Assembly: GCF_003602005.1 (NCBI RefSeq)
Contig: NZ_QZWD01000002.1
Span: forward strand, 62,001-126,000
From: Salinisphaera sp. Q1T1-3
GTDB lineage: Bacteria; Pseudomonadota; Gammaproteobacteria; Nevskiales; Salinisphaeraceae
Direction of reading: 5' to 3'
DNA: 64,000 nt
Below the pieces are notes generated by a model that had not been told where the DNA came from, searched no databases, and was given only the letters and a program-made list of their open reading frames with translations. How positions within the stretch are numbered: the first letter of the stretch is position 1; each line of letters opens with the position of its first letter. The position numbers and the translations under genes were made by a program. Positions 10,864-60,771 of the stretch are shown here, piece by piece.

Positions 10864-10873
10864 ATCCGCCACG

Positions 10874-15917: not shown

Positions 15918-15943
15918 GCCCGGGCCTTACGCTTAGGTACTGA

Positions 15944-17614
<1,671 letters not shown>

Positions 17615-44388: not shown

Positions 44389-44790
44389 AAACATGATTTC
44401 AGCCGGCTCGAACCGCCGGCCGGCTGCGTAGGCGGCGCTGCGTGCGAATCTTGACGGCGCCGGCTTGCGCTTCGCCCGAATCGAATTGATACTTTCGGCC
44501 AGTAGAACCGTTCTATATGGCGGTTCGATGGACAATACGGCTTTGTCGGCGTGTTCGCCTGGGCTATCTCATGCGACGAGACGACGAAGCCAGATTTTTC
44601 GAGTCAGAAAAGGCAAAGCTGTCGAAAGACGGTGACGCAAAACCACGGGCCTAAAGCGCTGTCGCGCCATGGTCGCCGGGTTGCCGCTCGTTGAGTTGGG
44701 GACGAGGGCATAAGTTCGTGATATTTCACGATCTCGTCCTGTCTTGCATCGAGATTGACCGGCGAGATCATTGAACGGGGGAATGGTCTC
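44389..44790. other. Intergenic region between LPS and exopolysaccharide loci
   Basis: About 400 bp without a supported gene. It begins with a hairpin (CAGCCGGC at 44400-44407 and GCCGGCTG at 44419-44426) just after waaA. The right half has a candidate sigma-54 site (44670-44684). The rest is not recognised. The locus change from LPS to the XrtA exopolysaccharide cluster occurs here. Confidence 0.7.
44670..44684 (+). promoter_or_regulatory. Candidate sigma-54 promoter of the exopolysaccharide locus
   Basis: TGG at 44670-44672 and TTGC at 44681-44684 have the exact -24/-12 spacing (GG and GC separated by 10 bp), but the TGGCAC part is only partly matched (TGGTCG). PrsR in this locus is a sigma-54-type activator, which makes such a site plausible. 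It lies about 107 bp upstream of the lipoprotein start. Confidence 0.35.
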
Positions 44791-47085
44791 ATGTCGGCCT
44801 TGATGACGCGTTTTCTGGTGATTGTGCTGCTCGGTTTCGGGCTTGTGGCCTGCAACGACGGCGGGGGTTCGGATCAATCCGGCAGCTCGGCCGATACTTC
44901 GGGCGGCGGTGCATCACAGGGGGGCGACGGCACGACGACGGACGGGGGCACGTCCGGCAAGGGCGATACGGCCAGTGCCCTGTCAGCCGAGGCGGGAACC
45001 CCGATCACGGATGCGTTTCCGAGCGCGCGCCGTATCACCACCGCCAAGGTGGTGAGTACCGGGGGACGAGCCGCCGCGACATTGACCTTCGGTCAGGTGT
45101 TCGCCAAGGGTCAGGTCGCCGGCGATGCCCATCTCGTGGCCGTGCGCGACGGACGCGTGTTGGCCACACAGACCGATCCGAAAGCGACATGGGCCGACGG
45201 CTCGCTACGACACGCCGTGTTGAGTGTTGCCGTGCCCAGGACCGGTGGCGACGCGGCCGTTTCGCTGTCGCTGTATGCGGTGGATCGAGCGCCGCAGTGG
45301 CGTGTCAAGGCGCCGACTCTGTCCGATCTGTTATCCCGTGATTTCGACGCGCGTCTGGCGTTGACGATGTCCGGAACCCGCTATACCGCAAACGCGCGAA
45401 CGGCCATCGAAAGCATCCAGTCCCGCGGCCGCTGTCCGGTGTGGGGAGCGCGTGATTGCAAACGCTGGCTCGACGGGCCGCTGGTCAGCGAATGGATCGT
45501 CGCCGCGCCGCTCGACGATGGGCGCGACCAGGCCCCGTTGCTGCGGACCTATTTCCATGTGCGTGCGATACGCGGGCCGGCGGGTCGTATCGACAACGTG
45601 CGCGTGGACACCGTCGTCGAGAATACGCGCAGTTACGATATCTCGCCGTCCAACCAGCATTACGATGCACGGATCACCGTCGGGCAGTCGCAGTACAGCG
45701 TCAGCGACCTGACGCACTATCTGCATGCCCGCTGGCATCATGTGCTCTGGCACAACGGTGCCCCGAAGCGCCGGATTCTGCCGTCTGTCGCCTATCTGCA
45801 GCAGAGCCGGGCGATCTCGAACTACGCCGATCTGTCGCCGGATAGCGATTTTCTCGCCGGCGTGCGCCAGAGCAATCCGCCGATGGCACGCGGCGACCTG
45901 ACGGCCTACATGGGCCAGACCGGTGCCCAGGCGGGCATCGGGCCGTTGCCGCAGTGGACGTCGGCCTATGCCGTATCCGGTGCGCTGCGCGCGTTTCGGT
46001 GGATGAAGGCCAACGACGATGCCGGCGGCAGTTATGGTTTCCACTACCGGGATGCGGCGACGGGACGGGCCCTGTCGATCGTCGACCATCCTTATGTGAC
46101 GCTGGCCAACTACAACTGGGCATCGCGAGCCGGGGGCCGGTTCGCGGTCGATCTGCTGCCGCGCTGCAATGCCGACTGCGAGTCGCCGTGGTCCTACGAA
46201 ATCGCGCATCAGCCGTCCATCGGCTATGTCACATATCTGGTCACCGGCGACTACTACTACCTCGAGGAGATGCAGTTCCAGGCCAGCTATGACGAACTCT
46301 GGGCCAACGAAGGCTATCGCAGCTTCGACAAGGGGCTCCTGCTGGGCGCACAGGATCAGGTGCGCGGCCAGGCCTGGGTGCTGCGTGCGATTTCCGATAC
46401 CGCCTTCGCGACGCCGGACGATGATCCGATGAAGTCGTACTTCGTCGGCCTGATCGATAACATCGTGGCCGATTATCTCGACAAGTACGTCGATGCGCCG
46501 AACCATCCGCTGCACGTGCTCGATGCCTACGGAGCCGTCCACTACCAGCTCAACGGACAGCGCCACAACGGCATCGCGCCCTGGCAACAGGATTTCTTCA
46601 CCTGGGCGGTCGGCCATGCGGCAGAACAGGATGTGCCGGGAGCGTCGCGGCTGCTGGCCTGGTTCGCCCCGTGGTACGTTGGCCTGATGACGGATACGGC
46701 CACGCTCGGCGGCGACGGATTCTGCTGGCTCAAGGCGAGTGCCTATGCCATGCAGCTCCGCGACGACGCCAACAGCCCGATCTATGACTCGCTGCAAACG
46801 GTCTACGATCGGAGCTTCCCGGCATTGGCCGGGACGTCGTGCAACAGCCAGACCATGCGACGGGCAATGGCCGACGGCGGTACGCCGGTACCGCTCGATC
46901 AGATGGACGGTTATCCCGAATCACCGACCGGGTTCCCGTCGAATCTGCAGATCGGTCTGGCCATGATCGCCAACACGGGCGAAAGCGGCGTCCGCCAGGC
47001 CTGGCAACGGTTCGCCACGCGGGCAACGCAGCCGGACTACGCCAATATGCCGCAGTTCGCCGTCGTGCCGCGCAGCGCAAATTAG
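44791..47085 (+). CDS. Large lipoprotein of unknown function in the exopolysaccharide locus
   Basis: A 764-residue protein with a lipoprotein signal (hydrophobic FLVIVLLGFGLVAC; the lipobox LVAC has the cysteine at residue 21) and a low-complexity G/S/T/D linker to about residue 60. The following ~170 residues are strand-rich (TLTFGQVFAKGQVAGDAHLVAV, ADGSLRHAVLSVAVP) and resemble the N-terminal RIFT-barrel of rhamnogalacturonan-lyase-like families. The C-terminal half is helical and W/Y-rich, as in (alpha/alpha) toroid carbohydrate-active enzymes. I cannot name the family. The start is ATG 44791; the upstream frame from 44755 is less likely. Its position suggests processing or binding of the polysaccharide. 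Confidence 0.6.
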   Translation: MSALMTRFLVIVLLGFGLVACNDGGGSDQSGSSADTSGGGASQGGDGTTTDGGTSGKGDTASALSAEAGTPITDAFPSARRITTAKVVSTGGRAAATLTFGQVFAKGQVAGDAHLVAVRDGRVLATQTDPKATWADGSLRHAVLSVAVPRTGGDAAVSLSLYAVDRAPQWRVKAPTLSDLLSRDFDARLALTMSGTRYTANARTAIESIQSRGRCPVWGARDCKRWLDGPLVSEWIVAAPLDDGRDQAPLLRTYFHVRAIRGPAGRIDNVRVDTVVENTRSYDISPSNQHYDARITVGQSQYSVSDLTHYLHARWHHVLWHNGAPKRRILPSVAYLQQSRAISNYADLSPDSDFLAGVRQSNPPMARGDLTAYMGQTGAQAGIGPLPQWTSAYAVSGALRAFRWMKANDDAGGSYGFHYRDAATGRALSIVDHPYVTLANYNWASRAGGRFAVDLLPRCNADCESPWSYEIAHQPSIGYVTYLVTGDYYYLEEMQFQASYDELWANEGYRSFDKGLLLGAQDQVRGQAWVLRAISDTAFATPDDDPMKSYFVGLIDNIVADYLDKYVDAPNHPLHVLDAYGAVHYQLNGQRHNGIAPWQQDFFTWAVGHAAEQDVPGASRLLAWFAPWYVGLMTDTATLGGDGFCWLKASAYAMQLRDDANSPIYDSLQTVYDRSFPALAGTSCNSQTMRRAMADGGTPVPLDQMDGYPESPTGFPSNLQIGLAMIANTGESGVRQAWQRFATRATQPDYANMPQFAVVPRSAN

Positions 47086-47098
47086 GATCGCGAATTTC

Positions 47099-48274
47099 GT
47101 GAGGGAACGAGAACAAGGTGATGGCACGTACCGGGTCGATCTGATCGCCGCCGCCCGGCCGAACTTCATCAAGATCGCGCGGCTGGTGCAGGCACTCGCC
47201 GATGCCCCGTGGTGCCGATTGCGTCTGGTGCACACAGGGCAGCATTACGATGCCAACATGTCACAGGCGTTCTTCGACGAGTTCGAACTGCCGGCGCCGG
47301 ATGTACATCTCGAAATCGGTGCGGGGACGCACGCCGAGCAGACCGGGCGTACGCTCATGGCCTACGAAGCAGCCTGTCGTACCGACCGGCCGGACTGGAC
47401 GATCGTGGTCGGCGACGTCAACGCCACGATCGCCTGCGCGCTGGCAGCGAACAAGTTGGGTATTCGTGTGGCGCATCTCGAAGCCGGATTGCGCAGTCAT
47501 GATCGTGCCATGCCCGAAGAAACCAACCGCGTGCTCACCGACCGCATCGCGGATCTGCTCTGGACGCCGTCCCCGGACGCAGATGCCAACCTGCGATACG
47601 AAGGCATCCCCGAACAACGCATCGCGCATGTCGGCAACATCATGATCGATACGCTCGTGCACATGCGCTCGAAAATTGCGGCCGATGACACACGTACCCG
47701 TTTCGGTCTGGTTGACGAAGGCTATGCCGTGGCGACCTTTCACCGACCGTCCAACGTCGACGATGCGGATGCCTGCCGGCGGCTGGTCGATACGCTGGCC
47801 GCACTCGGCGCGCGCCTGCCGGTGGTGATGCCGCTGCATCCGCGTACCGGAGCACGCCTGGCCGAATTCGGGCTGCTGGCGCGTCTGCGGTCCTGTGCCG
47901 GCGTACGGTTGACCGAGCCGCTCGGTTATATCGCCTTCATGAATCTGATCACCGGGGCGCGTGTCGTGGTCACCGACTCCGGCGGGGTTCAGGAAGAAAC
48001 GACCTATCTCGGTGTGCCGTGCCTGACCACGCGGGCCAATACCGAGAGACCGATTACCCTGAGTGAAGGTACCAATCGGCTGGTCTCGCTCACCAACCTC
48101 ATCGACGCCGTGGACGCCGAACTGAGCGGGCCGCGACGTGTGCGACGCGCGCCCCCGGCCTTGTGGGATGGCGCGACGGCCGGCCGCGTGGTCGCCAGTC
48201 TGGCCGCCCGCATCGGCGTCCCCTGCGAGGTGGCGGGAAATATGGTCGATGCCGATACTTTACATCCGCAGTGA
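47099..48274 (+). CDS. wecB: UDP-N-acetylglucosamine 2-epimerase (non-hydrolysing)
   Basis: A 391-residue cytosolic epimerase producing UDP-ManNAc. Family segments are AAARPNFIKIARLVQAL, LVHTGQHYDANMSQAFFDEF, VAHLEAGLRSHDRAMPEETNRVLTDRIAD and the substrate-site TDSGGVQEETTYLGVPCLT. It starts at GTG 47099, 13 bp after the lipoprotein. XrtA loci commonly hold such an epimerase, suggesting ManNAc or a derivative in the exopolysaccharide. Confidence 0.93.
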   Translation: MREREQGDGTYRVDLIAAARPNFIKIARLVQALADAPWCRLRLVHTGQHYDANMSQAFFDEFELPAPDVHLEIGAGTHAEQTGRTLMAYEAACRTDRPDWTIVVGDVNATIACALAANKLGIRVAHLEAGLRSHDRAMPEETNRVLTDRIADLLWTPSPDADANLRYEGIPEQRIAHVGNIMIDTLVHMRSKIAADDTRTRFGLVDEGYAVATFHRPSNVDDADACRRLVDTLAALGARLPVVMPLHPRTGARLAEFGLLARLRSCAGVRLTEPLGYIAFMNLITGARVVVTDSGGVQEETTYLGVPCLTTRANTERPITLSEGTNRLVSLTNLIDAVDAELSGPRRVRRAPPALWDGATAGRVVASLAARIGVPCEVAGNMVDADTLHPQ

Positions 48275-48283
48275 TGTTATAGT
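48275..48283 (+). promoter_or_regulatory. Extended -10 promoter candidate of the PEP-CTERM gene
   Basis: TGTTATAGT (48275-48283) is an extended -10 (TG-N-TATAGT), 44 bp upstream of the PEP-CTERM start codon. No -35 box is seen at the right distance. It falls between the epimerase stop and the PEP-CTERM gene. Confidence 0.45.
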
Positions 48284-48326
48284 ACGACCGTATTCAAGTG
48301 GGCACTGCCCAATCGAGGGGTTTGCG

Positions 48327-48668
48327 ATGAAAGACCGATTTCTGACGTCGTCATTCAAGCGTCGCGGCATGGCAACGCTGTTGTTGCTTTGTGCCGCCCT
48401 GTTTGCGGTGGTTCCGATCGCAAGCGCTTCCACGGCGAGCTCGCAGCCGGCAGCCGGCAGCTCCTACCTGCTGAGTTCGAACCAGAACGTCGTGCAGTCG
48501 AACAGCACGAACCACAACTCGGGGTTCGGTATCTGTATCGGCAGCGGTTGTGGTCGTACGAACGTGCCGGAGCCGGCAGCCTGGGCCGTGTTCGGCTTTG
48601 GCGCACTCCTGATTGCGTTCGGCATCGGTGTGCGTCGCCGTCGCATGGGGCCGTCGGTGATCCGATGA
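48327..48668 (+). CDS. Short PEP-CTERM sorting-domain protein
   Basis: A 113-residue exported protein: a hydrophobic signal (GMATLLLLCAALFAVVPIASAS), a short Asn/Ser-rich mature region (SSNQNVVQSNSTNHNSGFG) and a C-terminal sorting tail with VPEPAAWAVFGFGALLIAFGIG followed by VRRRR. The V-PEP-TM-basic tail is the signal recognised by exosortases (XrtA/EpsH), which replace it by an anchor. The ATG at 48327 is preceded by GAGGGG. A strong terminator follows, so it may be expressed independently. Such tiny Asn/Ser-rich proteins are the usual PEP-CTERM partner of XrtA exopolysaccharide loci. Confidence 0.92.
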   Translation: MKDRFLTSSFKRRGMATLLLLCAALFAVVPIASASTASSQPAAGSSYLLSSNQNVVQSNSTNHNSGFGICIGSGCGRTNVPEPAAWAVFGFGALLIAFGIGVRRRRMGPSVIR

Positions 48669-48718
48669 ATGGTCGTGATGAGACAGTGCATCGGCTGTAG
48701 CATGCCAACAGCCCGCGG

Positions 48719-48748
48719 ACCCGACGTACCGTACGTCGGGTTTTTTTT
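48719..48748 (+). terminator. Intrinsic terminator after the PEP-CTERM gene
   Basis: A hairpin with 10-bp arms (CCCGACGTAC/GTACGTCGGG) is followed by eight T, 50 bp after the PEP-CTERM stop. Confidence 0.92.
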
Positions 48749-48958
48749 GCCTGTGATTCGACGGTCGTAGCGCGGGCGGGGTTTAAAATTGCCGAAATCT
48801 GGGGGCCTGTCACACGATCCGGCTGCATGCCGGTCCGTGAGTGATCGTGAGTCGGGCATATGCTTGTCGTTGCATGGCGTCGTTGCCATGTGGCCGACGG
48901 ACAAGGGAGAGCGCGAGCTGCCGGCTTGGGGCCAGCGGGTGCGCGCGACGAGACGTCC

Positions 48959-50365
48959 ATGAATACGATTCGTCTTTTCAACCACCACATCCATGTCCGT
49001 TTCATCGGACTGGCGCTGGTCCATCTCGTGCTGCTGGCCGGCAGTATTCTCGTCGGCGCGCAGCTGCGCTTTCTCGGGATGAATGCCGATCTGATCGCCA
49101 GCCCGGCGATGATCGTGTTGCGTGCGCTCGTCTATGCCGCGCTCATGATGGTCGGCCTCGGGGCAATGGGTCTCTATCGCACCCAGCGTCAGGCCATGGG
49201 CTTCTCGATTCTGGCCCGTGTAGCGACCGGCCTCGTCTTCGGTGCCTTGCTCGCCTTCATCGTCTATTACGTGCTGCCGTCGTTGTTCGTCGGGCGCGGG
49301 GTCTTCGCGCTGGCCTGGCTGATGTCGTTTCTTACCGTGTCGGGCGCACAGCATCTGTTCGGTCGTTACGCCGTGCACAGCGGGGCCATGTGGCGTGTAC
49401 TGTTCTACGGGGCAGGCGACAATGCCGCGGAGCTGCTGGCCTTCATGCGTCGTCGCAGCGACCGTGCCCAGTTCCGTCTGACCGGATGCGTGGTCCTCGA
49501 CGGTGAGTCCTGTCGAGTCGAGGATGAGCTGCAGTGTCGCCTCGATCAGTCGTTGGCCGAATACGCCCAGGCCCACGACATCGACGAAATCGTGGTTGCC
49601 ATGGACGATCGGCGCCGTAATTTTCCGGCCGACGCGCTGATCGACTGCCGTATTGCCGGCATCAACGTCGTGGACATGGTCAGCTTCTATGAGCGTCAGA
49701 CCGGCCGCGTGAAAACCGAGTTGCTGCAGCCGAGCTGGATTATCTTTTCCGAGGGATTCCGCCAGGGGTCTTTCGATAATCTCGTCAAACGCGGTGTGGA
49801 TCTGGTGGCTTCCGCCGTGATGCTGGCCGTGCTCTGGCCGGTGATGCTGGTCGCCATGGTGGCGATCAAGTACGAGGAAGGCTGGCGCGCGCCGTGTTTC
49901 TATCGCCAGATCCGGGTCGGGGCCAACGGTCGGCATTTCTCGATTGTGAAATTCCGGACGATGCGTATCGATGCCGAAGCCGTGGGCGGTGCCCAGTGGG
50001 CGAGCGAGAATGATCCACGAATTACCCGCATCGGGCACCATCTACGAAGCCTGCGCATCGATGAGCTGCCGCAGATATGGAACGTCTTCTGTGGCGACAT
50101 GAGTCTGGTCGGCCCGCGACCGGAGCGTCCGCAGTTCGTCGAACGACTGACAGAGGTCCTGCCTTACTATCGCGTGCGGGGGTGCGTGCGGCCGGGCGTC
50201 ACCGGCTGGGCCCAGCTGTGCTATCCCTACGGCGCAACGGAAGCCGACTCCAATGCCAAGCTGCAGTTCGATCTTTATTACGTGAAGAATCGAAGCCTGT
50301 TCCTCGATCTGTTGATCCTGTGCAACACGATCGAAGTGGTGTTGTTTCGCAAGGGCAGCCGCTAG
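48959..50365 (+). CDS. XrtA/PEP-CTERM-associated initiating sugar transferase (EpsB-like)
   Basis: A 468-residue membrane enzyme that transfers the first sugar phosphate to undecaprenyl phosphate. It has four or five N-terminal membrane helices, a Rossmann-like domain (VLFYGAGDNAAELLAF) and a C-terminal bacterial sugar transferase domain with KFRTMRIDAEAVGG and RSLRIDELPQIWNVFCGDMSLVGPRPERPQF. The whole matches the TIGR03013 type of exosortase loci. The start at 48959 (MNTIRLFNHH) is chosen; an upstream frame is weaker. Its stop codon (TAG) is part of the left end of the repeat element at 50365. Confidence 0.92.
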   Translation: MNTIRLFNHHIHVRFIGLALVHLVLLAGSILVGAQLRFLGMNADLIASPAMIVLRALVYAALMMVGLGAMGLYRTQRQAMGFSILARVATGLVFGALLAFIVYYVLPSLFVGRGVFALAWLMSFLTVSGAQHLFGRYAVHSGAMWRVLFYGAGDNAAELLAFMRRRSDRAQFRLTGCVVLDGESCRVEDELQCRLDQSLAEYAQAHDIDEIVVAMDDRRRNFPADALIDCRIAGINVVDMVSFYERQTGRVKTELLQPSWIIFSEGFRQGSFDNLVKRGVDLVASAVMLAVLWPVMLVAMVAIKYEEGWRAPCFYRQIRVGANGRHFSIVKFRTMRIDAEAVGGAQWASENDPRITRIGHHLRSLRIDELPQIWNVFCGDMSLVGPRPERPQFVERLTEVLPYYRVRGCVRPGVTGWAQLCYPYGATEADSNAKLQFDLYYVKNRSLFLDLLILCNTIEVVLFRKGSR

Positions 50366-50758: not shown

Positions 50759-52888
50759 ATGTTCCCGACCCTGAACGCGACTGAGCTCTGGTTGTTGTCC
50801 AACGGTCTCGCGGCGGGCGGGTTTGCCGCGCTCGCGCTGGTGCTGCAGTTCGGGATCCGGGCCGATCATCGGGCATTGCCCTGGTTGATCGGGGCGAGTC
50901 TGGTCAGCGCATTCTGGTTCGGCCTGCTGGTCATCGCGCCAATCCTGCACCCGGGCGGCGCCACGCTCGATCTGGTCGAATCGATACGAACCGGGCTCTG
51001 GATCATCGCGGCCCTTCATCTATTGCCGCGGGAAATCGCGCATCGCCCCACGATACGGACCTGTCGTACCTTGGCGCTCGGGGTGGCCGCGTTGCTCGTG
51101 CTGGTTGCCGCGGTCCCGTTTCTGCGCGGCATGCTGGCCACAGGCACAGCGCCGCCGGGACATGGTATCGGCTTCGTTCTGCTGATGATCGCCGCCTCGC
51201 TGATCGGGCTTGTGATCATCGAGGCGACCTATCGAGCCAGCGATGTCGATGCGCGCTGGGCGATCAAGTTCGCCTGCATCGCGCTGGCGGCGCTGTTCGC
51301 CTACGATTTCGTGATGTATTCCGGCGCGCTGATTGCGCATCGCATTCCGGTAGCGTCCTGGAACGCGCGTGGTTTCGCCAATCTGCTGGCCGTGCCGCTG
51401 ATTGCTCTGGCCGCGTTGCGCAACGATCGCTGGACGAGCCGCGTCAGCGTGTCGCAGAAAGCGTTGTTCTCGGCCACGGTGTTGATTGCAGCCGGGCTGT
51501 ATCTGACCGGCACGGCGATCGTGGGCATGATCATCCGGCGATTCGGTGGCAGCTGGGCCGAGGCCGTGGCGCTGCTGTTCGTCGTCGCGGCGGTCATGGC
51601 GCTGGTGGTGCTGGTTTCGTCAGGCCAGGTGCGCGGTACGGCACGTGTGCTGCTGCGCAAGCATCTGCTTGCCTATCGCTATGATTATCGCGAGCAGTGG
51701 CTGGCGTTGACGCGCCGGCTCGGGCGCAGCGATGACGGAATGGGCCCGCACGAACGTGCGATTCGTGCCGTGGCCGAAGCCCTGGATTGCCCTGGCGGGG
51801 CGGTGTGGATTTTGCGGGACGAGCGCTATGTCTGTGCCGCCGACTGGAATCTCGGCGAGGCGCATGAGGCGAGTCTGCCGGCCGATAGTGCATTCACCGC
51901 GTATCTGGCCCGTACGGCCTGGGTGGTCGATATCACGGCCTGGCGTCGCGACGCCGGTCCATACGAGGGGCTCGTGATGCCGCCGGCCCTCGAGGCATTG
52001 CGGCGTGCGCGTCTGATTCTGCCGCTCTTTGCCGGCGGCACGAGCCTGATCGGCTTTCTCGTGTTGGCCTCGCCTCGGGCAGCATTCGAGCTGGGCTGGG
52101 AAGAACTCGATCTGCTCAAGGCGTTCGGCCAGCAGGTCGGGGTCTATCTCGATCATGAGGAAAGCAGCCGCGCGCTCGCCCAGGCGCGTCAGTTCGAAGC
52201 ATTCAATCGGCTGACGGCCTTTCTCATGCACGATCTGAAGAATATCGCCGGCCAGCAGTCGCTGATCGTCCAGAACGCGCGCAAGCACCGTGAAAACCCG
52301 GCGTTCATCGACGACATGATCGAGACCGTGGAATATTCGGTCGCGCGCATGCAGCGTGTTCTGGAACAACTCGGTCGGGTTTCGCAGGGCCAGGATGTGG
52401 CACGTCGGGTCGAGGTCGATGCCGTGGTCGATACGGTGCTCGATGGTCTGGCCAGTTCGCGCCCGCGGCCGCAGCGGATTTCGCCGCCCTGTGGTGCGCA
52501 GGTGACGCTGGATGCCGATCGGCTCGGCATGATGCTGCGTCATCTGTTGCGCAACGCCCAGGATGCGACGACGCCCGAAGGCCGTGTCGCAGTCGAAGTC
52601 GAGACGGGGGCGGGCGAGGTCAAGATCAGCGTGATCGACGACGGCGTCGGCATGACGCCGTCGTTCATTCGTGATGAGCTGTTCCAGCCGTTCGTGAGCA
52701 CGAAGTCCGCGCGGGGCATGGGGATCGGTGCCTTCCAGGTCCGCGATTTTGCACGGGCATGCGGCGGTCGTGTGACCGTGGACAGCCGCCCGAACGAGGG
52801 CACGCGTTTTACACTCAGGTTGCCATGCCTCGATGCCACGCACGAGGATGCACCGATCGAAGCCACGAATTCCGGGGGAACGGCATGA
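50759..52888 (+). CDS. prsK: XrtA/PEP-CTERM system histidine kinase PrsK
   Basis: A 709-residue membrane sensor kinase. Several hydrophobic helices occupy residues 10-290, a GAF-like domain lies about 330-440, the phosphoacceptor H491 is in AFLMHDLKNIAGQQ and the ATPase domain has LLRNAQDA, DDGVGM and the G-box GMGIGAF. This architecture is TIGR02916 (PrsK). The ATG at 50759 has GGAGG 6 nt upstream. Its stop overlaps the prsR start. It senses an unknown signal and phosphorylates PrsR. Confidence 0.93.
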   Translation: MFPTLNATELWLLSNGLAAGGFAALALVLQFGIRADHRALPWLIGASLVSAFWFGLLVIAPILHPGGATLDLVESIRTGLWIIAALHLLPREIAHRPTIRTCRTLALGVAALLVLVAAVPFLRGMLATGTAPPGHGIGFVLLMIAASLIGLVIIEATYRASDVDARWAIKFACIALAALFAYDFVMYSGALIAHRIPVASWNARGFANLLAVPLIALAALRNDRWTSRVSVSQKALFSATVLIAAGLYLTGTAIVGMIIRRFGGSWAEAVALLFVVAAVMALVVLVSSGQVRGTARVLLRKHLLAYRYDYREQWLALTRRLGRSDDGMGPHERAIRAVAEALDCPGGAVWILRDERYVCAADWNLGEAHEASLPADSAFTAYLARTAWVVDITAWRRDAGPYEGLVMPPALEALRRARLILPLFAGGTSLIGFLVLASPRAAFELGWEELDLLKAFGQQVGVYLDHEESSRALAQARQFEAFNRLTAFLMHDLKNIAGQQSLIVQNARKHRENPAFIDDMIETVEYSVARMQRVLEQLGRVSQGQDVARRVEVDAVVDTVLDGLASSRPRPQRISPPCGAQVTLDADRLGMMLRHLLRNAQDATTPEGRVAVEVETGAGEVKISVIDDGVGMTPSFIRDELFQPFVSTKSARGMGIGAFQVRDFARACGGRVTVDSRPNEGTRFTLRLPCLDATHEDAPIEATNSGGTA

Positions 52889-54270
52889 CCGACAACGCAC
52901 AACGTCTGCTCATCGTCGAGGACGATCCGGGGCTGACGCGTCAGTTGCGATGGGCGTTCGACGATTATTCGCCGATCTTCGCCGAGGATCGGGCGGGGGC
53001 GGTTGATCAGCTACGGCGACACGAGCCCCAGGTGGTGCTGCTGGATCTGGGCCTGCCGCCGGCGGCCGATGGCATCACGGAGGGCATGGCCGCGCTCGAC
53101 GAGATTCTCGCCCTGGCGCCGATGACCAAGGTTATTGTCGTGACCGGCAACGGGGATGAGTCCAGTGCGATGCAGGCCATTGCGACCGGGGCCTACGACT
53201 TCTATCAGAAGCCGGTCGATACCGAGATCGTGGGACTGATCATTCAGCGTGCCTTTCATATCTGGCAGCTCGAGCAGCAGAATCGCGAGCTCCGGTCTGG
53301 GGTCGACCGGCCCCTGGACGGTGTGGTTGCCATCAGTGACAACATGCGCCAGGTGCTGCGGCAGTTGGAAAAGATTGCGCCGACGAACGCCACGACCCTG
53401 CTGCAAGGGGATACGGGCACCGGCAAGGAAGTATTGGCACGTGCCCTGCATCGCCTGAGTCCGCGTGCGAATCGGTCTTTCGTGGCGATCAATTGCGCGG
53501 CGATTCCCGAGCATCTGCTCGAAAGCGAACTGTTCGGCTACGAAAAGGGCGCCTTCACCGGTGCCCAGAAACAGACGCCCGGCAAGGTGGAGCTGGCCGA
53601 CGGGGGCACGCTGTTTCTGGACGAAATCGGGGATATGGCGCCGCCGCTCCAGGCAAAGCTGTTGCGTTTTCTGCAGGAGCGTGTGATCGAGCGGGTCGGT
53701 GGGCGTCGCGAGATTGCAGTGGATGCGCGTGTCATCTGTGCCACACATCGTGATCTGAATACGCTGATCGCCAGCGGCACGTTTCGCGAGGATCTGTACT
53801 ACCGGATCGCCGAGATCACGCTGCATATCCCGGCACTCAAGGATCGGCCGGGCGATGCGGTGGCCATCGCCCGGGTCCTGTTCGAAAACGCCAGCGGCGC
53901 GCACAAGCGCGCACTACGGGGGCTGGCGCCGGATGCCGTGGCCGCGATCGAGGCCTATGAGTGGCCGGGCAACGTACGCGAGCTCGAGCATCGCATCAAT
54001 CGCGGTGTCATTCTCACCGAGAACAATCGCCTGAGCGCGGCGGATCTCGGATTGAGCGCGCCGGCGGGGGATGGGCGTACGCCGGAACGGCTCAACCTGC
54101 GCCAGGTGCGCGATGAAGCCGAACGCGAGGCGGTCTCGCAGAGCCTCGAGCACGCTGAAGGCAATGTCTCGCATGCGGCACGCCTGCTCGGCATCTCGCG
54201 TCCGGCACTCTACGATCTGATGCGCAAGCACCGGATCGAGTCGCATGCCGCACAATCGGCCTCGTCGTGA
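52885..54270 (+). CDS. prsR: XrtA/PEP-CTERM system response regulator PrsR (sigma-54 activator)
   Basis: A 461-residue NtrC-like regulator. The receiver domain has phosphoacceptor D54 in VVLLDLGLPP; the AAA+ domain has Walker A GDTGTGKE (residues 175-182), the sigma-54 contact loop GAFTGA (222-227) and DGGTLFLDEIGDM; the C-terminal Fis-type HTH is HAARLLGISRPALYDLMRKH. This matches TIGR02915 (PrsR). The ATG at 52885 overlaps the prsK stop by 4 bp. It is expected to activate PEP-CTERM or exopolysaccharide promoters with sigma-54. Confidence 0.94.
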   Translation: MTDNAQRLLIVEDDPGLTRQLRWAFDDYSPIFAEDRAGAVDQLRRHEPQVVLLDLGLPPAADGITEGMAALDEILALAPMTKVIVVTGNGDESSAMQAIATGAYDFYQKPVDTEIVGLIIQRAFHIWQLEQQNRELRSGVDRPLDGVVAISDNMRQVLRQLEKIAPTNATTLLQGDTGTGKEVLARALHRLSPRANRSFVAINCAAIPEHLLESELFGYEKGAFTGAQKQTPGKVELADGGTLFLDEIGDMAPPLQAKLLRFLQERVIERVGGRREIAVDARVICATHRDLNTLIASGTFREDLYYRIAEITLHIPALKDRPGDAVAIARVLFENASGAHKRALRGLAPDAVAAIEAYEWPGNVRELEHRINRGVILTENNRLSAADLGLSAPAGDGRTPERLNLRQVRDEAEREAVSQSLEHAEGNVSHAARLLGISRPALYDLMRKHRIESHAAQSASS

Positions 54271-54334
54271 GGCCGGTGCACAAAGCACGGACGTCGACAG
54301 ACAGATCAAAACGAATATGACGGGAGACGCGATC

Positions 54335-57163
54335 GTGACGAGTGGACGAGGGGCAGCACGGCGCAGGATGCGCGGCGCATTGGCAGGCGGCCTGATTGTC
54401 GCGACCGGTCTGGTACTGGGCGGCTGCGGTGGGCCAAGTCCGGACGCGCAGATGAGTGCGGCACAGAAAGCCTATCGCCAGAGCGATTACCAGCGTGCCG
54501 AAGTCCAGTTGAAGACGCTGTTGCAGAAACAACAGGACAACGCCGCCGCCTGGCTGCTGCTCGGGCGTGTATCGCTGGCCCGGCGTGATTACGACGATGC
54601 CGTCCATCAGTTCGAGCAGGCCCGTCAGCAGGGTAGCGACCCGGCCGATCTGCGCTTGCCCATGGCCCAGGCCCTGGTCTCCACCGATCAATACGACCGT
54701 GCGCTCACTGTTTTGAATGCGGACGGTGTGAACACCAAGGACGAGACGAGCGATACCCGGGCGCAGGGGGGCGTGCTGCGCGGTCTGGCCCTGCTGGGCC
54801 AGAACAAGCTCACCGAGGCCCGGGCCGCGCTCGACCATGCGATCGAGCTTGCGCCGGACATGCCGGCAGCGCTGCACGCTCGTGCCCGCATCGCCGAAGC
54901 CCAGGGCGACACGGATATCGCCCGGGATGATCTGAATCGCGCGATCGCCAACGATCATGACGACCGCGCCGCCCAGGCCCTGCTCGGGCGGCTCGAATAT
55001 CGCAATCAGCATTGCGATGCGGCTGTGGGGCCGCTGGCGGCCGCGCTGCAGGGCGGCCGCCAGCAGTTGTCCGCTGCCGATACACGCCAGCCACGGGCGA
55101 TGCTGGCCGATTGTCAGCTGCGGCTCGGTCAGCGCGATGAGGCCGAAGCCAATATCAAGACACTGCTGGCCGCCAATGCCAACGATCCGTATGCCCATTA
55201 TCTACAGGCACTGGTCGAGATCGGCAACGGCAACTATCAAGCGGCGGCCAACCACGTTCAGGCCACCCTGAACGCTGACCCGAACAATCTGCGCAGCATG
55301 ACGCTGATGGCCTGGATCCGCATCGTCCAGGGCCAGCCCGACACGGCTCGACCGTATCTGGACCGCGTGCTCGCGCGTGCGCCCGACGATGCAATGGCGT
55401 TGCGACTGCGGGCGGGCATGCTGGTGGCGGACAACCAGGGCGCGCAGGCGCTGGACCTGGTCCGGCAGGCCTACAAGCGCCAGCCCGATGCGCCCGGTGT
55501 GCGCCAGTCCCTGGCAGCCGTCACGGCGTGGCTGGACACGCACGACGCGTCGAACCAGAGCGCGTCGTCGGCAACGGGGGCAGGGGATGTCGAGCTGCAG
55601 ATCGAGCTGGCCCGCTCGTTGATGGGGCTCGACAGCCCGGCCGCCGCGCTGGCGGTGCTGGACCGGATCGAACCGGCGAACGCCGAGGCACGTCAGCGGG
55701 TCGCCGCGGCCCGGGTCGGTATCCTGCTGGCCGGTGGTTCGCACGATCAGGCGATCGCGGCGGCCAAGGCGCTCGTCGCTGAACAGCCGACGCTCGACGC
55801 CCGGCTTCTGTTGATCGATGCCTATGCCAGCGCCGGTCAGTATGCGCAGGCTCAGGGCGTTCTCGGAGCGATCCAGGGCCAGGACGATGATGATCGGGTG
55901 GCCCGCGTACGCGCGGCCCTGGCATTGCAGCAGGGGGATTACGCAACGGCCGAGCATGTCCTGACGGCGCTTGCGAAGACACATCCCGACGACGAACGCA
56001 TCGCGCGCCAGCTGACGGCGGTCTATCTGCAGACCGGGCGCCCCGAGCAGGCGGCGCAAACGCTGGCCGCACTCGCCAAGGCGCATCCGGACGACGATAC
56101 GCTGCAGCAACATCTGGCACGGCTGTACGTGGATACGGGCCGCATCGACAAGGCCAGGGCGCTGATCAAGCCACATCTGTCCGGCAACGATGCCCAGCAG
56201 GCCGCCTGGCGCACACTCGATGGCATCGCCCAGCTGGCTCGCGGCGACACCGCGCAGGGGCTGGCCACGCTGGAACAGGCCGCGAGCGACAACAGCGATC
56301 CGCGTGCCGGCCTCACGCTCGCCCAGGCGCGTCTGGCCAATGATCAGACCGCAGCGGCGCTCGAACAGCTGCGCGCCATGGTCAAGAACAGGCCCAGTTT
56401 CTGGGCCGCGCGTGCCTTGCTCGCTCAGGCTGAGCTCCAGAACGGCGATGTCGCCGCGGCCAGTAGCCAGGTCGAGGCATTGCGCTCGGGCGGTCAGGTT
56501 CTCATGGCGGACGTGCTGGCCGGTGATATCGCGCGTCGACGCCAGGATTACGCCAAGGCCGATGCCGCCTACGGGGCCGCTTACGACCGTCGAGCCTCCG
56601 CCGCGCTGGCGATGGCGCGCTTCGAGGTCCGCCGTGCCGGGCAGCTCGACGACCCCGAAGTGCCGTTGACCGACTGGCTGTCACAGTCTCCGGACAGTGC
56701 GCCGGTCGCACTTCAACTGGCGAGCTGGTACCAGGCCAACGGCCGCGACGGCGCTGCCGCCAAGGTTTATCGGCGGCTCGTGTCGGCTCAGCCGCGCAAT
56801 CCCGTGGCCTTGAACAATCTCGCCCTGCTCAGTGCCAAGGGCGATCGCGCCCAGGCGATCAACTACGCGCGGTCGGCCCATCAGGCCGCGCCCGATTCGC
56901 CGGCCATCAGCGATACGCTGGGCTGGTTGCTCTGGCAGAACGGAGATCACGCCGAAGCGCTGTCGCTGCTGGCAAGCGCTTATCAGGCGGCAGGGCAGTC
57001 GGCTGAAATCGCCTATCATTACGGTATCGCACGCGCGAACAGTCCGGATGCCCAGGGCCCGCCGGCCGATGCCGCGCTCAAGGCAGCGCTTGCGGGCGAC
57101 CTGAGTGCCGAGCAACAACGTCAGGCCCGACAGCTGCTGCAGTCGCCGGACAGCGGATCGTGA
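54335..57163 (+). CDS. prsT: XrtA/PEP-CTERM system TPR-repeat lipoprotein PrsT
   Basis: A 942-residue exported lipoprotein: basic N-terminus, hydrophobic segment ending at the lipobox LGGC (cysteine about residue 31), then many tetratricopeptide repeats to the end (for example QKAYRQSDYQRAEVQLKTLLQ and ARIAEAQGDTDIARDDLNRAI). This is the TIGR02917 (PrsT) type. A GTG at 54335 with GGGAG eight bases upstream is preferred; ATG 54317 in the same frame is the alternative. It follows prsR by 64 bp. Thought to scaffold polysaccharide export or protein sorting at the envelope. Confidence 0.9.
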   Translation: MTSGRGAARRRMRGALAGGLIVATGLVLGGCGGPSPDAQMSAAQKAYRQSDYQRAEVQLKTLLQKQQDNAAAWLLLGRVSLARRDYDDAVHQFEQARQQGSDPADLRLPMAQALVSTDQYDRALTVLNADGVNTKDETSDTRAQGGVLRGLALLGQNKLTEARAALDHAIELAPDMPAALHARARIAEAQGDTDIARDDLNRAIANDHDDRAAQALLGRLEYRNQHCDAAVGPLAAALQGGRQQLSAADTRQPRAMLADCQLRLGQRDEAEANIKTLLAANANDPYAHYLQALVEIGNGNYQAAANHVQATLNADPNNLRSMTLMAWIRIVQGQPDTARPYLDRVLARAPDDAMALRLRAGMLVADNQGAQALDLVRQAYKRQPDAPGVRQSLAAVTAWLDTHDASNQSASSATGAGDVELQIELARSLMGLDSPAAALAVLDRIEPANAEARQRVAAARVGILLAGGSHDQAIAAAKALVAEQPTLDARLLLIDAYASAGQYAQAQGVLGAIQGQDDDDRVARVRAALALQQGDYATAEHVLTALAKTHPDDERIARQLTAVYLQTGRPEQAAQTLAALAKAHPDDDTLQQHLARLYVDTGRIDKARALIKPHLSGNDAQQAAWRTLDGIAQLARGDTAQGLATLEQAASDNSDPRAGLTLAQARLANDQTAAALEQLRAMVKNRPSFWAARALLAQAELQNGDVAAASSQVEALRSGGQVLMADVLAGDIARRRQDYAKADAAYGAAYDRRASAALAMARFEVRRAGQLDDPEVPLTDWLSQSPDSAPVALQLASWYQANGRDGAAAKVYRRLVSAQPRNPVALNNLALLSAKGDRAQAINYARSAHQAAPDSPAISDTLGWLLWQNGDHAEALSLLASAYQAAGQSAEIAYHYGIARANSPDAQGPPADAALKAALAGDLSAEQQRQARQLLQSPDSGS

Positions 57164-57616: not shown

Positions 57617-58231
57617 GTGAGTAATTTCAAGTGCGTATGGGGCGTGCTGTGTCTGGCGCTGGTGTGTGCGGTGCTGGCCGGCTGCGCCGGCACGACATCA
57701 CCGACGCTCCATCAGAAGGCCGATGCCACCACTTACCGGATCGGTCCGGGCGACACGCTTCAGATCTACGTGCGGAACAATGCCGATCTGAGCATGCAGG
57801 TGCCGGTGCGGCCGGATGGCAAGATCTCGATGCCGCTGGTTCAGACCATCGTGGCGGCGAACAAGACGCCGGACGAGCTGGCCGGCGATCTGACCCAGGC
57901 CTTATCGGAATACGTGCGCGATCCGGTCGTCACCGTGATCGTCACCCAGTTCCAGGGCACGTACGCCGATCAGGTGCGCGTCGTCGGCGAAGCGGCCCAG
58001 CCGCGGTCGATGCCCTATCGCGAGGGCATGACGCTGCTCGACGTGATGATCAACGTCGGCGGCCTGACCCAGTTCGCCGCGGGTAATCGTGCCAAGCTGG
58101 TGCGTCAGCAGAGCAACGGTCAGACGCAGAGCTACAGCGTGGATCTCGAGGATCTGCTCAACGGCAATATCAAGGACAACGTGCCGATGCATCCCGGCGA
58201 CGTCGTCATCATTCCGCGAACCTACTTCTAA
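57617..58231 (+). CDS. XrtA/PEP-CTERM-associated polysaccharide export lipoprotein (EpsD/Wza-like)
   Basis: A 204-residue exported lipoprotein of the Wza/OPX family. The signal ends at lipobox LAGC (Cys23); the Poly_export domain has YRIGPGDTLQIYVRNN and RPDGKISMPLV, and a SLBB-like domain with VRVVGEAAQPRSMPYREGMTLLDVMINVGG follows. Short OPX members of this kind belong to exosortase loci (TIGR03027). GTG start 57617 has GGGG upstream. It opens a block of five export-related genes. Confidence 0.92.
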   Translation: MSNFKCVWGVLCLALVCAVLAGCAGTTSPTLHQKADATTYRIGPGDTLQIYVRNNADLSMQVPVRPDGKISMPLVQTIVAANKTPDELAGDLTQALSEYVRDPVVTVIVTQFQGTYADQVRVVGEAAQPRSMPYREGMTLLDVMINVGGLTQFAAGNRAKLVRQQSNGQTQSYSVDLEDLLNGNIKDNVPMHPGDVVIIPRTYF

Positions 58232-58299: not shown

Positions 58300-59895
58300 A
58301 TGCAGGAACTGTTCTCTCTGTTGATCACCCAGCTGCGCAACGTCTGGCGTTTCCGCTGGACTGCGCTGATCATCGCCTGGGTCATCGCTCCGCTGGCCTG
58401 GCTCTATGTGCTGAGCCTGCCCAACCAGTATCAGTCCTCGGCGCGCGTGCACATCGACACGAAATCGGCGATCAGTCCGCTGCTCAGCGGTATGGCGGTG
58501 ACGCCCGACCCCGACGAGCAGGTCAATCTGCTCGTGCGCACAGTGATGAGCCGGCCGAACCTGCGTGACATCGCTCGTTCAACCGGGCTGGATCTGAAAG
58601 CGACCACCACGGAACAGCAGCAGGCGCTGGTCAACGGTCTGTCGCAACGCATCAAGTTGCAGAACACCGGCGGCGGCACCGACGTCTACAGCATCTCCTA
58701 CACGAGCGCGAACCCGAAGACCGCGCAATCCGTGGTTCAGGAAGTCATCAGTGTGATGACGACGATCAACCTGTCCAAGAACACGGGCGACGACAATTCC
58801 GCCCAGGCCGTGGACTTCCTCAAGCAGGAGGTCTCGAAATATCGCGATCAGCTGACCCAGACCGAGCAGGCTCTGGCATCGTTCAAGAAAGAGCACGCCG
58901 AGCTCATGCCCGGGACCGACGACTATGTCGCCCGTCTGCAAAAACTCAATGCGGACATCGACGCGCTCCAGGACAAGTTGGCCGCGGCGCGTGATCAGCA
59001 GGCCAGTCTCGAACAGCAGATGGGCGGTGCCAGCCGCAGCAGCGGTCCGGCCCGGGTCTCGCCGAGCCAGAGCACGCAGATCCGCCAGCTCGACGATCAG
59101 ATCGATCGTCAGCAACAGACGCTCACGCAGCTGTTGTCGAAGTACACGCCGCAGCACCCGGACGTGATCGCGGCCCAGCGTCAGCTCGACCAGCTCAAGC
59201 AGCGCCGCGAGGATACGCTGGCCGATCTGCGCGCCAACCCCGGCAAGATCGAATCGCCGGCCGGTGGAAGCAGCGGCGGCAGCGGCAGCAATTCCGTGGC
59301 CGGTCAGCTCAGCCAGGTCCGCATGCAGGTCAATACGCTGCAGTCGTCGCTCTCGCGCAAGCAGGATCAATTGAAGACCCTGCAGGAAGGCGCGGACAAC
59401 ATGAACGAGGCACAGGCCAAGCTCGCCGAGCTCAGCCGCAACTATCAGGTCACGCGCGATCAGTACGAGAAACTGCTCTCGCGTCTGTACAGCGCGCAGT
59501 TGTCGACCGACGTGCAGAAAAGCGCCGGTGGCCTGGATTTCCGGGTCATCGATCCGCCGGAAGTGCCGGTTCGCCCGACCGGGCCCAAGCGCATCCTGAT
59601 GATGGCGGTTGCGCTCATCGGCGCGCTGGTCGCCGGTGTCGCCTTCGCGCTGTTCCTCGCCCAGATCCGGCCGGTGTTCAATTCGCGCAGTGGGCTGACA
59701 CAGTCGACCGGTTATCCGGTGCTGGGCGCGGTCACACGCGCGCATTCGCCGGCCGAACGCGCCAAACGACGGACGGCACTGCTGATCTATGCGGCCTTCT
59801 GTATGACGCTGATCGTCGGATTCGCCGCTGCCGTGCTTCTGATTCCGGTGGCCACGGCGGTCTTCCCGCACATCCTGCCGAGTCCGCAGCTATGA
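58300..59895 (+). CDS. XrtA-associated chain-length determinant (Wzz-like)
   Basis: A 531-residue inner-membrane protein of the Wzz/PCP type. It has an N-terminal membrane helix (about residues 22-42), a long periplasmic coiled-coil region (residues 170-400), a glycine/serine-rich insert (GGSSGGSGSN near 325) and a second pair of helices near the C-terminus (about 430-460 and 490-520). It sets chain length and links to the tyrosine-kinase-like protein that starts inside its stop codon (ATGA at 59892). It matches the TIGR03007 type. Confidence 0.9.
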   Translation: MQELFSLLITQLRNVWRFRWTALIIAWVIAPLAWLYVLSLPNQYQSSARVHIDTKSAISPLLSGMAVTPDPDEQVNLLVRTVMSRPNLRDIARSTGLDLKATTTEQQQALVNGLSQRIKLQNTGGGTDVYSISYTSANPKTAQSVVQEVISVMTTINLSKNTGDDNSAQAVDFLKQEVSKYRDQLTQTEQALASFKKEHAELMPGTDDYVARLQKLNADIDALQDKLAAARDQQASLEQQMGGASRSSGPARVSPSQSTQIRQLDDQIDRQQQTLTQLLSKYTPQHPDVIAAQRQLDQLKQRREDTLADLRANPGKIESPAGGSSGGSGSNSVAGQLSQVRMQVNTLQSSLSRKQDQLKTLQEGADNMNEAQAKLAELSRNYQVTRDQYEKLLSRLYSAQLSTDVQKSAGGLDFRVIDPPEVPVRPTGPKRILMMAVALIGALVAGVAFALFLAQIRPVFNSRSGLTQSTGYPVLGAVTRAHSPAERAKRRTALLIYAAFCMTLIVGFAAAVLLIPVATAVFPHILPSPQL

Positions 59896-60770
59896 GTATC
59901 GTCGAGAAAGCCGCCGCACGTCTCAAGCGACAGGAAGGGGCGAGCGTGGACGACGCGCCGTCGGATGTCGCACGCGATGCGGTCGCCGGCCCGCAAGATG
60001 AGCGTCGTCCGGATGGCCGCATCACCCGTGTGACACTGGACGATGTCCGCTTGCGGCGAATCGGCATGATGCCGCCCGAGTCGATGGATCTGTGGCTCAC
60101 GCGAGAGTTTCAGCGCATCAAGCGACCGTTGCTGTCGCGCATCGGCAGTGACGAGGCGACGACCACCCAGCCGCTGACGCGCATCATGTTCACCAGCGCG
60201 AACCCCGGCGACGGCAAGAGTTTCATCACGTTCAATCTGGCGTTGAGTCTGGCCAACGAGATGGACTACAGCGTGCTGCTGATCGACGGGGATGTCGCCA
60301 AGCCCGGCATCACCCGGGCGCTGGGACTGGAGAACGAGCCCGGCCTGATTCATCTGCTGACCGATCGTGAAGCGCCGGCCGAGAGCTGCGTGATTCCCAC
60401 CGACGAGCCGCGGCTTTCGATTCTGCCATCCGGACGGCGCAGTCGTGGTGCGGTCGAGCGGCTGTCGAGCCGGCGCATGGGCGAGCTTCTCGACGAGCTG
60501 GGCACCGACGAGACACGCCTGTTGATCATCGATTCCGCGCCGCTGCTGGCGGCGGCCGAGTCGCAGGCGCTGGCCGGTCACGTGGGCCAGATCGTGATGG
60601 TGGTCGCAGCCGGCAAGACCGAGCAGCGGGCCGTGACCTCGGCGCTGTCGCTGATCGAGCCCTCTGGCGCAGAGATCAGCTGCGTGCTCAACCAGACCGA
60701 GACCTTCGACGACGATCGGCATGCCGGTTATTACGGGGTGTATCCGGGTGAAGCGGACGGATCGGAATAA
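59892..60770 (+). CDS. XrtA-associated tyrosine-kinase-like ATPase (CpsD/CapB family)
   Basis: A 292-residue cytosolic P-loop protein of the BY-kinase family. Walker A is FTSANPGDGKSF (residues 100-111), Walker A' LLIDGDVAKPG and Walker B RLLIIDSAPLL. The C-terminal tail has few tyrosines (AGYYGVYPGEADGSE), fewer than in typical tyrosine clusters. It is coupled to the chain-length gene by a 4-bp overlap and corresponds to TIGR03018. It probably regulates polymerisation or export. Confidence 0.9.
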   Translation: MSIVEKAAARLKRQEGASVDDAPSDVARDAVAGPQDERRPDGRITRVTLDDVRLRRIGMMPPESMDLWLTREFQRIKRPLLSRIGSDEATTTQPLTRIMFTSANPGDGKSFITFNLALSLANEMDYSVLLIDGDVAKPGITRALGLENEPGLIHLLTDREAPAESCVIPTDEPRLSILPSGRRSRGAVERLSSRRMGELLDELGTDETRLLIIDSAPLLAAAESQALAGHVGQIVMVVAAGKTEQRAVTSALSLIEPSGAEISCVLNQTETFDDDRHAGYYGVYPGEADGSE

Positions 60771-60771
60771 C

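What the first reader, a model, noticed from the sequence alone, without database searches (positions are those of the whole stretch)
44791..47085. Unclassified 764-residue lipoprotein at the head of the exopolysaccharide locus
It has a clear lipobox, a Ser/Gly linker, a strand-rich RIFT-barrel-like part and a W/Y-rich helical C-terminal half resembling polysaccharide-active enzymes. Its position in an XrtA locus suggests it trims, cleaves or binds the polysaccharide. I cannot place it in a named family.
Basis: inference. Interest (0 to 1): 0.65.

Follow-up and report, generated by a model that had tools for sequence, protein, structure and literature searches.

The report
Lyase-like lipoprotein bracketing an exopolysaccharide locus
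A surface lipoprotein shaped like a fungal pectin-cutting enzyme, together with a sister copy, sits at the two ends of a bacterium's slime-making gene cluster and probably trims that slime; a reasonable lead for a new enzyme group, not yet tested.

Summary
The gene is real: 764 aa, lipobox LVAC, flexible linker, first gene of an exosortase-A (XrtA) exopolysaccharide (EPS) locus, probably of Salinisphaera. It can be placed: residues 94-150 match Pfam PF19501 (PcRGLX RIFT barrel) above cut-off, and a 12-row AlphaFold2 model (pTM 0.88) matches PL26 exo-rhamnogalacturonan lyase over its whole length (Foldseek E 3.2e-6; VIA-align Z 13.0, 489 residues). Pfam models of PL26 domains 2 and 3 do not match, so it is a distant PL26-fold relative, not a filed member. 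A 41-42% identical paralogue closes the locus outside the window; the pair flanks XrtA in 6 of 6 XrtA-positive genomes of the genus. In 369 class-level genomes, 14 of 15 family carriers have an XrtA-model match, against 117 of 369 overall; at the model's cut-off, 10 of 15 against 73 of 369. Two His, two Arg and one Tyr of the toroid are invariant in 40 of 40 aligned rows. Best reading: an outer-membrane lipoprotein that cleaves its own locus's EPS, probably by beta-elimination. Activity, substrate and active site are not shown.

The parts
44791..47085 (+). Lipoprotein gene, 764 aa: PL26-fold candidate EPS lyase ('head' copy)
44791..44853 (+). Signal peptide and lipobox LVA|C (Cys21; the +2 residue is Asn, not Asp, so outer-membrane sorting is expected from the +2 rule, recalled)
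   Evidence: sequence; lipobox also in orthologues L002-L005
44854..45060 (+). Low-complexity Gly/Ser/Asp/Thr linker; in orthologue L005 a long DDAT/DDST/DDSP-type repeat linker instead
45070..45240 (+). PcRGLX_1st RIFT barrel domain (residues 94-150)
   Evidence: PF19501, 28.1 bits, cut-off 22.1; 12 of 12 members of A1 match at E<=1
45349..45783 (+). Central all-beta domain (about residues 187-331)
   Evidence: AlphaFold2 model; VIA-align on PL26 spans model 1-684
45787..47082 (+). Helical (alpha/alpha toroid) domain (about residues 333-764), with invariant H418, H473, R525, W529, R532, W598, Y652
47099..48274 (+). wecB, UDP-GlcNAc 2-epimerase
   Evidence: TIGR00236 above cut-off
48327..48668 (+). 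Small (113 aa) PEP-CTERM-like protein, a likely XrtA substrate
   Evidence: (18.9 bits, below the 20.7 cut-off)
48860..50365 (+). EpsB_2-type XrtA/PEP-CTERM system glycosyltransferase
   Evidence: TIGR03013 above cut-off
50759..52888 (+). PrsK histidine kinase
   Evidence: TIGR02916 above cut-off
52759..54270 (+). PrsR response regulator (ORF as listed; true start probably further in)
   Evidence: TIGR02915 above cut-off, matched from residue 50
54245..57163 (+). PrsT TPR protein
   Evidence: TIGR02917 above cut-off
57617..58231 (+). Wza-type polysaccharide export protein (Poly_export + SLBB)
   Evidence: PF02563 above cut-off
58300..59895 (+). XrtA-system polysaccharide chain length determinant
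   Evidence: TIGR03007 above cut-off
59892..60770 (+). XrtA-associated tyrosine autokinase
   Evidence: TIGR03018, 185.3 bits, below its 230.65 cut-off
60721..62841 (+). Conserved locus protein orf706, no Pfam match

Best explanation
The protein is exported by Sec, acylated at Cys21 and (inferred) sorted to the outer membrane. A flexible linker carries a three-domain module: RIFT barrel, beta domain and helical toroid. The fold and domain order are those of PL26 exo-rhamnogalacturonan lyase. I infer that the toroid cleft, with invariant His, Arg and Tyr residues, cleaves the exopolysaccharide made by its own XrtA locus, most likely by beta-elimination next to a uronate. That would trim chain length or release polymer at the surface. 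A paralogue at the other end of the locus would do a related job. Shown here: export signal, fold match, conservation, locus position, co-occurrence and paralogue pair. Inferred: catalysis, lyase chemistry, substrate, outer-membrane location.
For: PF19501 above cut-off, matched by 12 of 12 members of A1 at E<=1. Foldseek rows 1-11 in the PDB are all PL26 (best E 3.2e-6, row 11 E 1.2e-3). VIA-align Z 12.7-13.0 over 489-501 residues spanning model 1-684, against 9.6 for the next row, which covers the toroid only. Invariant in 40 of 40 rows: Q127, N278, Y291, H418, H473, R525, W529, R532, W598, Y652. No Asp or Glu is invariant; the best in the toroid is D543 (37 D, 2 E, 1 A), which fits a lyase better than an Asp-dependent hydrolase. 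Synteny. Co-occurrence: 14 of 15 carriers have an XrtA-model match at E<=0.001, versus 117 of 369 overall (Fisher p 6.5e-7, not corrected for relatedness). Four orphan copies lie beside a gene with a PEP-CTERM-like tail. Six alphaproteobacterial copies carry RTX (GGxGxD) repeats, so they too look secreted. A UDP-glucose 6-dehydrogenase-like gene and galE lie downstream of the second copy, so uronate supply is plausible.
Against: No biochemistry. PF21345 and PF21346 (PL26 domains 2 and 3) match none of the 12 members tested, and profile comparison with three PL26-like proteins aligns only the RIFT part, at 34.8% probability. Foldseek TM-scores for PL26 are low (0.19-0.41 of the query), and warns that helical models can reach Z about 13-14 without kinship; the domains were not folded and searched singly. 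PF19501 by itself is widespread: over cut-off in 3 of 14 control genomes. The PL26 catalytic residues could not be mapped. At the exosortase model's own cut-off only 10 of 15 carriers have XrtA; weaker matches may be other exosortases. One Salinisphaera genome (G001) has the family but no XrtA match. Three of eight named loci, nine of 14 class-level stretches (two of them under 5 kb) and a Skermanella plasmid copy show fewer than two XrtA-type EPS genes nearby. The EPS structure is unknown, so uronate content is a guess.
Confidence: 0.6

Rival explanations
1. A glycoside hydrolase rather than a lyase: the toroid works like GH88/GH105 or another (alpha/alpha)6 hydrolase on the same EPS.
For: After PL26, the closest folds are mostly GH105/GH88-type (YteR Z 9.6, GH88 Z 9.3, UGL Z 9.2; toroid only). 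D543 and E493 are 37/40 and 36/40 conserved.
Against: No Asp or Glu is strictly invariant in 40 rows. PL26 matches over the whole module with higher Z.
Confidence: 0.15
2. A polymer-level uronate C5-epimerase or other EPS-modifying enzyme of lyase-like fold that remodels and does not cut.
For: A dermatan sulfate epimerase structure is described as remarkably similar to bacterial proteins (PMC8006597, start of abstract seen); shared chemistry of lyases and epimerases is recalled. RTX-fused relatives recall the secreted mannuronan epimerases of Azotobacter (recalled).
Against: The best fold match is an exo-lyase. The epimerases listed are sugar 2-epimerases at Z 7.4-8.5 (50 rows shown).
Confidence: 0.1
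3. A non-catalytic EPS-binding or anchoring lipoprotein that tethers polymer to the outer membrane.
For: Lipid anchor plus long flexible linker.
Against: Invariant His, Arg and Tyr in the toroid over 40 rows and three architectures: lipobox, ordinary signal peptide, RTX fusion.
Confidence: 0.08
4. A scavenging enzyme that degrades foreign polysaccharide such as pectin for food, next to the EPS locus by chance.
For: The relative with a named activity acts on rhamnogalacturonan (PDB titles). Several copies are not beside EPS genes; the Skermanella copy is on a plasmid next to partition genes, with sugar ABC transporter genes about 17 kb to either side.
Against: The genes beside the window copy are EPS biosynthesis and export genes. 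The pair flanks XrtA in 6 of 6 XrtA-positive genomes of the genus.
Confidence: 0.07

Closest known systems
Polysaccharide lyase family 26, exo-rhamnogalacturonan lyase of Penicillium chrysogenum (PDB 5XQ3/5XQG/5XQJ/5XQO)
   Same: Domain order and overall fold (Z 13.0, 489 aligned); N-terminal RIFT domain family PF19501
   Different: 11-12% identity in the structural alignments; Pfam domains 2 and 3 not recognised; lipid-anchored bacterial protein beside EPS biosynthesis genes; active site not mapped
GH105/GH88 unsaturated glycuronyl hydrolases (YteR 2GH4, UGL 1VD5)
   Same: Toroid fold (Z 9.6 and 9.2)
   Different: Match covers the toroid only; no strictly invariant acidic residue here
XrtA/PEP-CTERM exopolysaccharide loci (Haft et al. 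2006, PMC1569441; passages seen)
   Same: EpsB_2, PrsK, PrsR, PrsT, chain-length, FemAB, amidotransferase and exosortase genes
   Different: The term 'lyase' has 0 occurrences in that paper's main text; this family is an addition in a minority of XrtA-type genomes (14 of 117 in the class sample)

Membership tests
PL26 (PcRGLX) | N-terminal RIFT barrel PF19501 | tested here: met
   28.1 bits, cut-off 22.1; 12 of 12 members of A1 match at E<=1; the tail paralogue scores 18.1, below cut-off
PL26 (PcRGLX) | Central beta-sandwich PF21345 and toroid PF21346 recognised by sequence | tested here: not met
   No match at E<=1 in any of 12 members; no PF21346 match in G000
PL26 (PcRGLX) | Same three-domain fold | tested here: met
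   Foldseek E 3.2e-6, probability 1.00; VIA-align Z 13.0, rmsd 4.2, 489 aligned, model 1-684 on chain 27-919. Model pLDDT 79.7 and Foldseek TM-scores at most 0.41, so domain placement is approximate
PL26 (PcRGLX) | Catalytic residues of PL26 conserved | not testable with these tools
   No coordinates or residue-level structural alignment available; sequence searches did not reach the PL26 chains; the structure paper (Kunishige 2018) was seen only as a reference-list entry
PL26 (PcRGLX) | Exo-lyase activity on rhamnogalacturonan | not testable with these tools
   needs an assay
GH88/GH105 | (alpha/alpha)6 toroid with conserved catalytic Asp (Asp recalled) | tested here: inconclusive
   Toroid matches at Z 9.1-9.6 for the best rows; no Asp or Glu invariant in 40 rows, D543 37/40
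XrtA-type EPS locus (as locus member) | Encoded within or at the edge of a locus with XrtA and Prs genes | tested here: met
Bacterial lipoprotein | Lipobox with Cys after a hydrophobic signal | tested here: met
   LVAC at residues 18-21; lipobox in 4 of the 5 other head copies (L002-L004 by pattern, L005 by eye), the fifth (L006) cut by a contig end

The most novel reading that the evidence does not exclude
This is the founding group of a new polysaccharide-lyase family dedicated to the polymer of exosortase-A loci. It acts on self-made EPS, comes in Salinisphaera as a duplicated pair that brackets the locus, and may control how EPS and PEP-CTERM proteins are released from, or held at, the cell surface.
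Probability: 0.3. Interest if true: 0.65.

Novelty: new variant of a known kind. Interest (0 to 1): 0.42.

Why it matters
XrtA-type exosortase matches were found in 117 of 369 genomes of this class sample, and EPS with PEP-CTERM proteins is reported to be needed for floc formation in the sludge bacterium Zoogloea (PMC9012009, start of abstract). An enzyme that cuts this polymer would give a handle on its structure, a tool to disperse flocs and biofilms, and a test of how PEP-CTERM proteins depend on the polymer. It would also extend the PL26 fold from pectin breakdown to EPS biosynthesis loci.

Tried and rejected
Single-sequence AlphaFold2 gave an unusable model (pLDDT 34.9); it was replaced by a 12-row alignment. 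Domains were not folded or searched one by one.

Sequence searches against the PDB with the protein and with 12- and 40-row profiles gave only weak or no hits: bacteriochlorophyll a protein at E 0.06 or worse, a GTPase at E 0.24, none. NCBIfam (up to E 10) and PHROGs (up to E 0.1) had no match.

Mapping the PL26 active site through PL26-like proteins of other genomes failed. PF21346 was found in 0 of 150 phylum genomes and 3 of 339 class genomes. The proteins fetched from those three did not help: the one tried against the PDB did not reach the PL26 chain, and the three aligned to our profile only in the RIFT domain.

A sigma-54 promoter scan (pattern recalled) found 28 sites in the window against 26.7 expected, none between 39386 and 46582; 0 sigma-70-like sites in 44380-48900 against 1.0 expected.

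Paper searches: PcRGLX (0 papers); PL26 with catalytic residues (1 paper, a GH28 study by its listing); YetA with lyase terms (0); exo-rhamnogalacturonan lyase or PL26 (5 papers, listings only, except passages of PMC7596534); exosortase with lyase or polysaccharide lyase (4 and 3 papers, listings only, except passages of PMC7662799). None describes this family in what I saw; most subscription papers are not in that library, so this is weak evidence of absence.

Full report
What is there. The ORF at 44791-47085 (+) is intact and encodes 764 residues. It begins with a lipoprotein signal (LVAC, Cys21), followed by a Gly/Ser/Asp/Thr linker. Pfam finds one domain, PF19501 PcRGLX_1st, at residues 94-150 (28.1 bits, cut-off 22.1); NCBIfam finds nothing up to E 10. 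The genus is Salinisphaera by inference: G001, listed as of the same genus as the window's genome G000, has a copy on a contig of 74850 bases, the length of the contig of a record titled Salinisphaera sp. GH4 that carries the same match.

Structure. Without an alignment AlphaFold2 failed. With 12 rows, made of the window sequence and loci from the search for related loci, it gave pLDDT 79.7 and pTM 0.88 for residues 81-764: beta-rich to about residue 331, helical after that. Foldseek against the PDB put chains of PL26 exo-rhamnogalacturonan lyase in rows 1-11 (best E 3.2e-6). Its TM-scores are low (0.19-0.41 of the query) with high rmsd, so the relative placement of domains differs or is not well modelled. 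VIA-align gave Z 12.7-13.0 with 489-501 aligned residues and rmsd 4.2-4.6, spanning model 1-684; the next rows, mostly GH105/GH88, aligned on the toroid only at Z 9.1-9.6. The notes of that call warn that helical models can reach Z of about 13-14 by a common arrangement, and advise folding single domains, which I did not do. The coverage of the whole module, the gap to the next family and the independent Pfam hit on domain 1 together make the PL26-fold reading credible. PF19501 alone would not: it rings over cut-off in 3 of 14 control genomes. Domains 2 and 3 are not recognised by PF21345 or PF21346 in any of 12 members, and comparison with three PL26-like proteins aligned only the RIFT segment, at 34.8% probability. 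So it is folded like, and perhaps works like, a PL26 enzyme, but I do not file it as a PL26 member.

Conservation. One search found 48 stretches similar to the 81-764 module. Left out of the 40-row alignment were four short partial ones (L019, L020, L055, L058), L007 (same as L021), L061 (part of L053), L028 (close to L027) and L059 (start missing); L001 is represented by the window sequence itself. Fifteen columns are invariant, ten of them polar or aromatic: Q127, N278, Y291, H418, H473, R525, W529, R532, W598, Y652. No Asp or Glu is invariant: E234 is 39 E and 1 D, D136 39/40, D543 37/40, D601 34/40 with Ser in the other six. Two His, two Arg and one Tyr in the toroid are the kind of residues that toroid lyases use, while GH88/GH105 enzymes use Asp (both recalled).

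The locus. Downstream come wecB, a 113-aa PEP-CTERM-like protein at 48327-48668, EpsB_2, PrsK, PrsR, PrsT, a Wza-type export protein, a chain-length determinant and a tyrosine autokinase inside the window. Beyond the window follow a DUF3473 deacetylase, FemAB, a glycosyltransferase, XrtA, a second glycosyltransferase, the XrtA amidotransferase, further glycosyltransferases, the PEP_O_lig_1 ligase, and then a second PL26-fold gene at L029:17219-19420, 41-42% identical to the first and about 36 kb from it, start to start. A Wzx-like gene, galE, a PseC-like aminotransferase and a nucleotide-sugar dehydrogenase closest to UDP-glucose 6-dehydrogenases follow.

Distribution in relatives. In 61 genomes the family is in 7, all of the window's genus (7 of 14 genus members, own included; 0 of 47 others). 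XrtA above its cut-off is in 6 of the 61; five more, outside the genus, match only weakly. All 6 carry the family with one copy on each side of XrtA, by the coordinates: G000, G003, G005, G007, G011, G012. Detailed synteny was examined in G000, G003, G005 and G007. G001 carries the family without an XrtA match. In the tree the six head copies group together (100/99) and the six tail copies together (100/100), so the duplication is older than the split of these species.

Distribution in the class. Three searches of 369 genomes returned the same make-up (314 of good quality, 271 genera), so I take them as one draw. 15 carry the family. 117 have an XrtA-model match at E<=0.001 and 73 above cut-off. 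14 of the 15 are among the 117 (the exception is G249) and 10 of the 15 among the 73; the weaker matches may be other exosortases. Fisher's exact p is 6.5e-7 for the looser count, without correction for relatedness. In 6 of the 14 (G000, G210, G226, G392, G402, G415) both lie on one contig within about 25 kb. In the other eight they are on different contigs; for most the assemblies are fragmented, but in G261 (172-kb contig) and G134 (56-kb contig) at least 25 kb lie on both sides of the copy, so there the two are really apart, and there the exosortase match is below cut-off. The G402 family match is partial and weak (E 4.4e-4, 5.2e-9).

Neighbourhoods elsewhere. Of the eight named loci, five (L022, L023, L025, L027, L028; the last two near-identical) have XrtA-type EPS genes within the fetched flanks; L021, L024 and L026 do not. 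Of the 14 class-level stretches, five (L068, L070, L071, L072, L073) have two or more such genes, and nine do not, two of these being under 5 kb. A copy on a Skermanella rosea plasmid, annotated only as 'calcium-binding protein', is not at an EPS locus. In the orphan clade of four Salinisphaera copies (97/96) each lies next to a divergently transcribed gene for an exported protein with a PEP-CTERM-like tail: L034, L035, L036 and L041, the last the same as L021. The four neighbours look alike by eye; I did not align them. Two were put to Pfam: L036 is above the PEP-CTERM cut-off, L034 below it. The two other orphan copies differ: L037 shows no such neighbour among the ORFs listed, and L011 had too little flank to judge. 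This ties part of the family to the exosortase system even away from the EPS locus. The six alphaproteobacterial copies carry RTX repeats and no lipobox by pattern; of the four Oxalobacteraceae copies two have a lipobox and two look like ordinary signal peptides. Export recurs while its route changes.

Mechanism. The most likely reading is a surface enzyme that cuts the polymer its own locus makes. Export is supported by sequence; outer-membrane sorting follows from the +2 rule (recalled). The lyase chemistry is inferred from the fold, from invariant His, Arg and Tyr, and from a nearby UDP-glucose 6-dehydrogenase-like gene that could supply uronate. Substrate and activity are untested.

Novelty. 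Enzymes that trim EPS inside EPS loci are a known kind (recalled examples: AlgL, PslG, BcsZ). A PL26-fold relative linked to XrtA loci, present as a bracketing pair, was not found in the paper searches I ran (listings, with passages of three papers), and the library leaves out most subscription journals. I rate it a new variant of a known kind.

Noticed in passing
window 48327-48668 (+): A 113-aa protein with a PEP-CTERM-like tail between wecB and EpsB_2, likely an XrtA substrate, followed by a terminator-like hairpin at 48717-48743. G005 has a counterpart in the same gap (L031).
   Followed up: partly
L029:10967-12454 (ORF; conserved part probably starts well inside): orf496, another protein with relatives in XrtA-type loci (L022, L070, L071, L072 and the Salinisphaera loci L033, L038, L042), with only sub-threshold Pec_lyase and squalene-hopene cyclase matches: a second possible polysaccharide-acting protein in the same locus.
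   Followed up: partly
L034:8519-9328, L035:12875-13684, L036:12721-13758, L041:8185-9015: Similar-looking exported proteins with a PEP-CTERM-like tail sit divergently next to the orphan PL26-fold copy in four genomes; G001 (L041) has such a pair but no XrtA match.
   Followed up: partly
L005, upstream of 3543 (-): The head copy of G012 has a linker with more than 100 residues of DDAT/DDST/DDSP-type repeats between lipobox and enzyme module.
   Followed up: no
L025 (Oceanibacterium hippocampi), about 2000-16150: Three copies in a row, all with RTX GGxGxD repeats, one in an open frame of about 2100 aa with further repeats.
   Followed up: no
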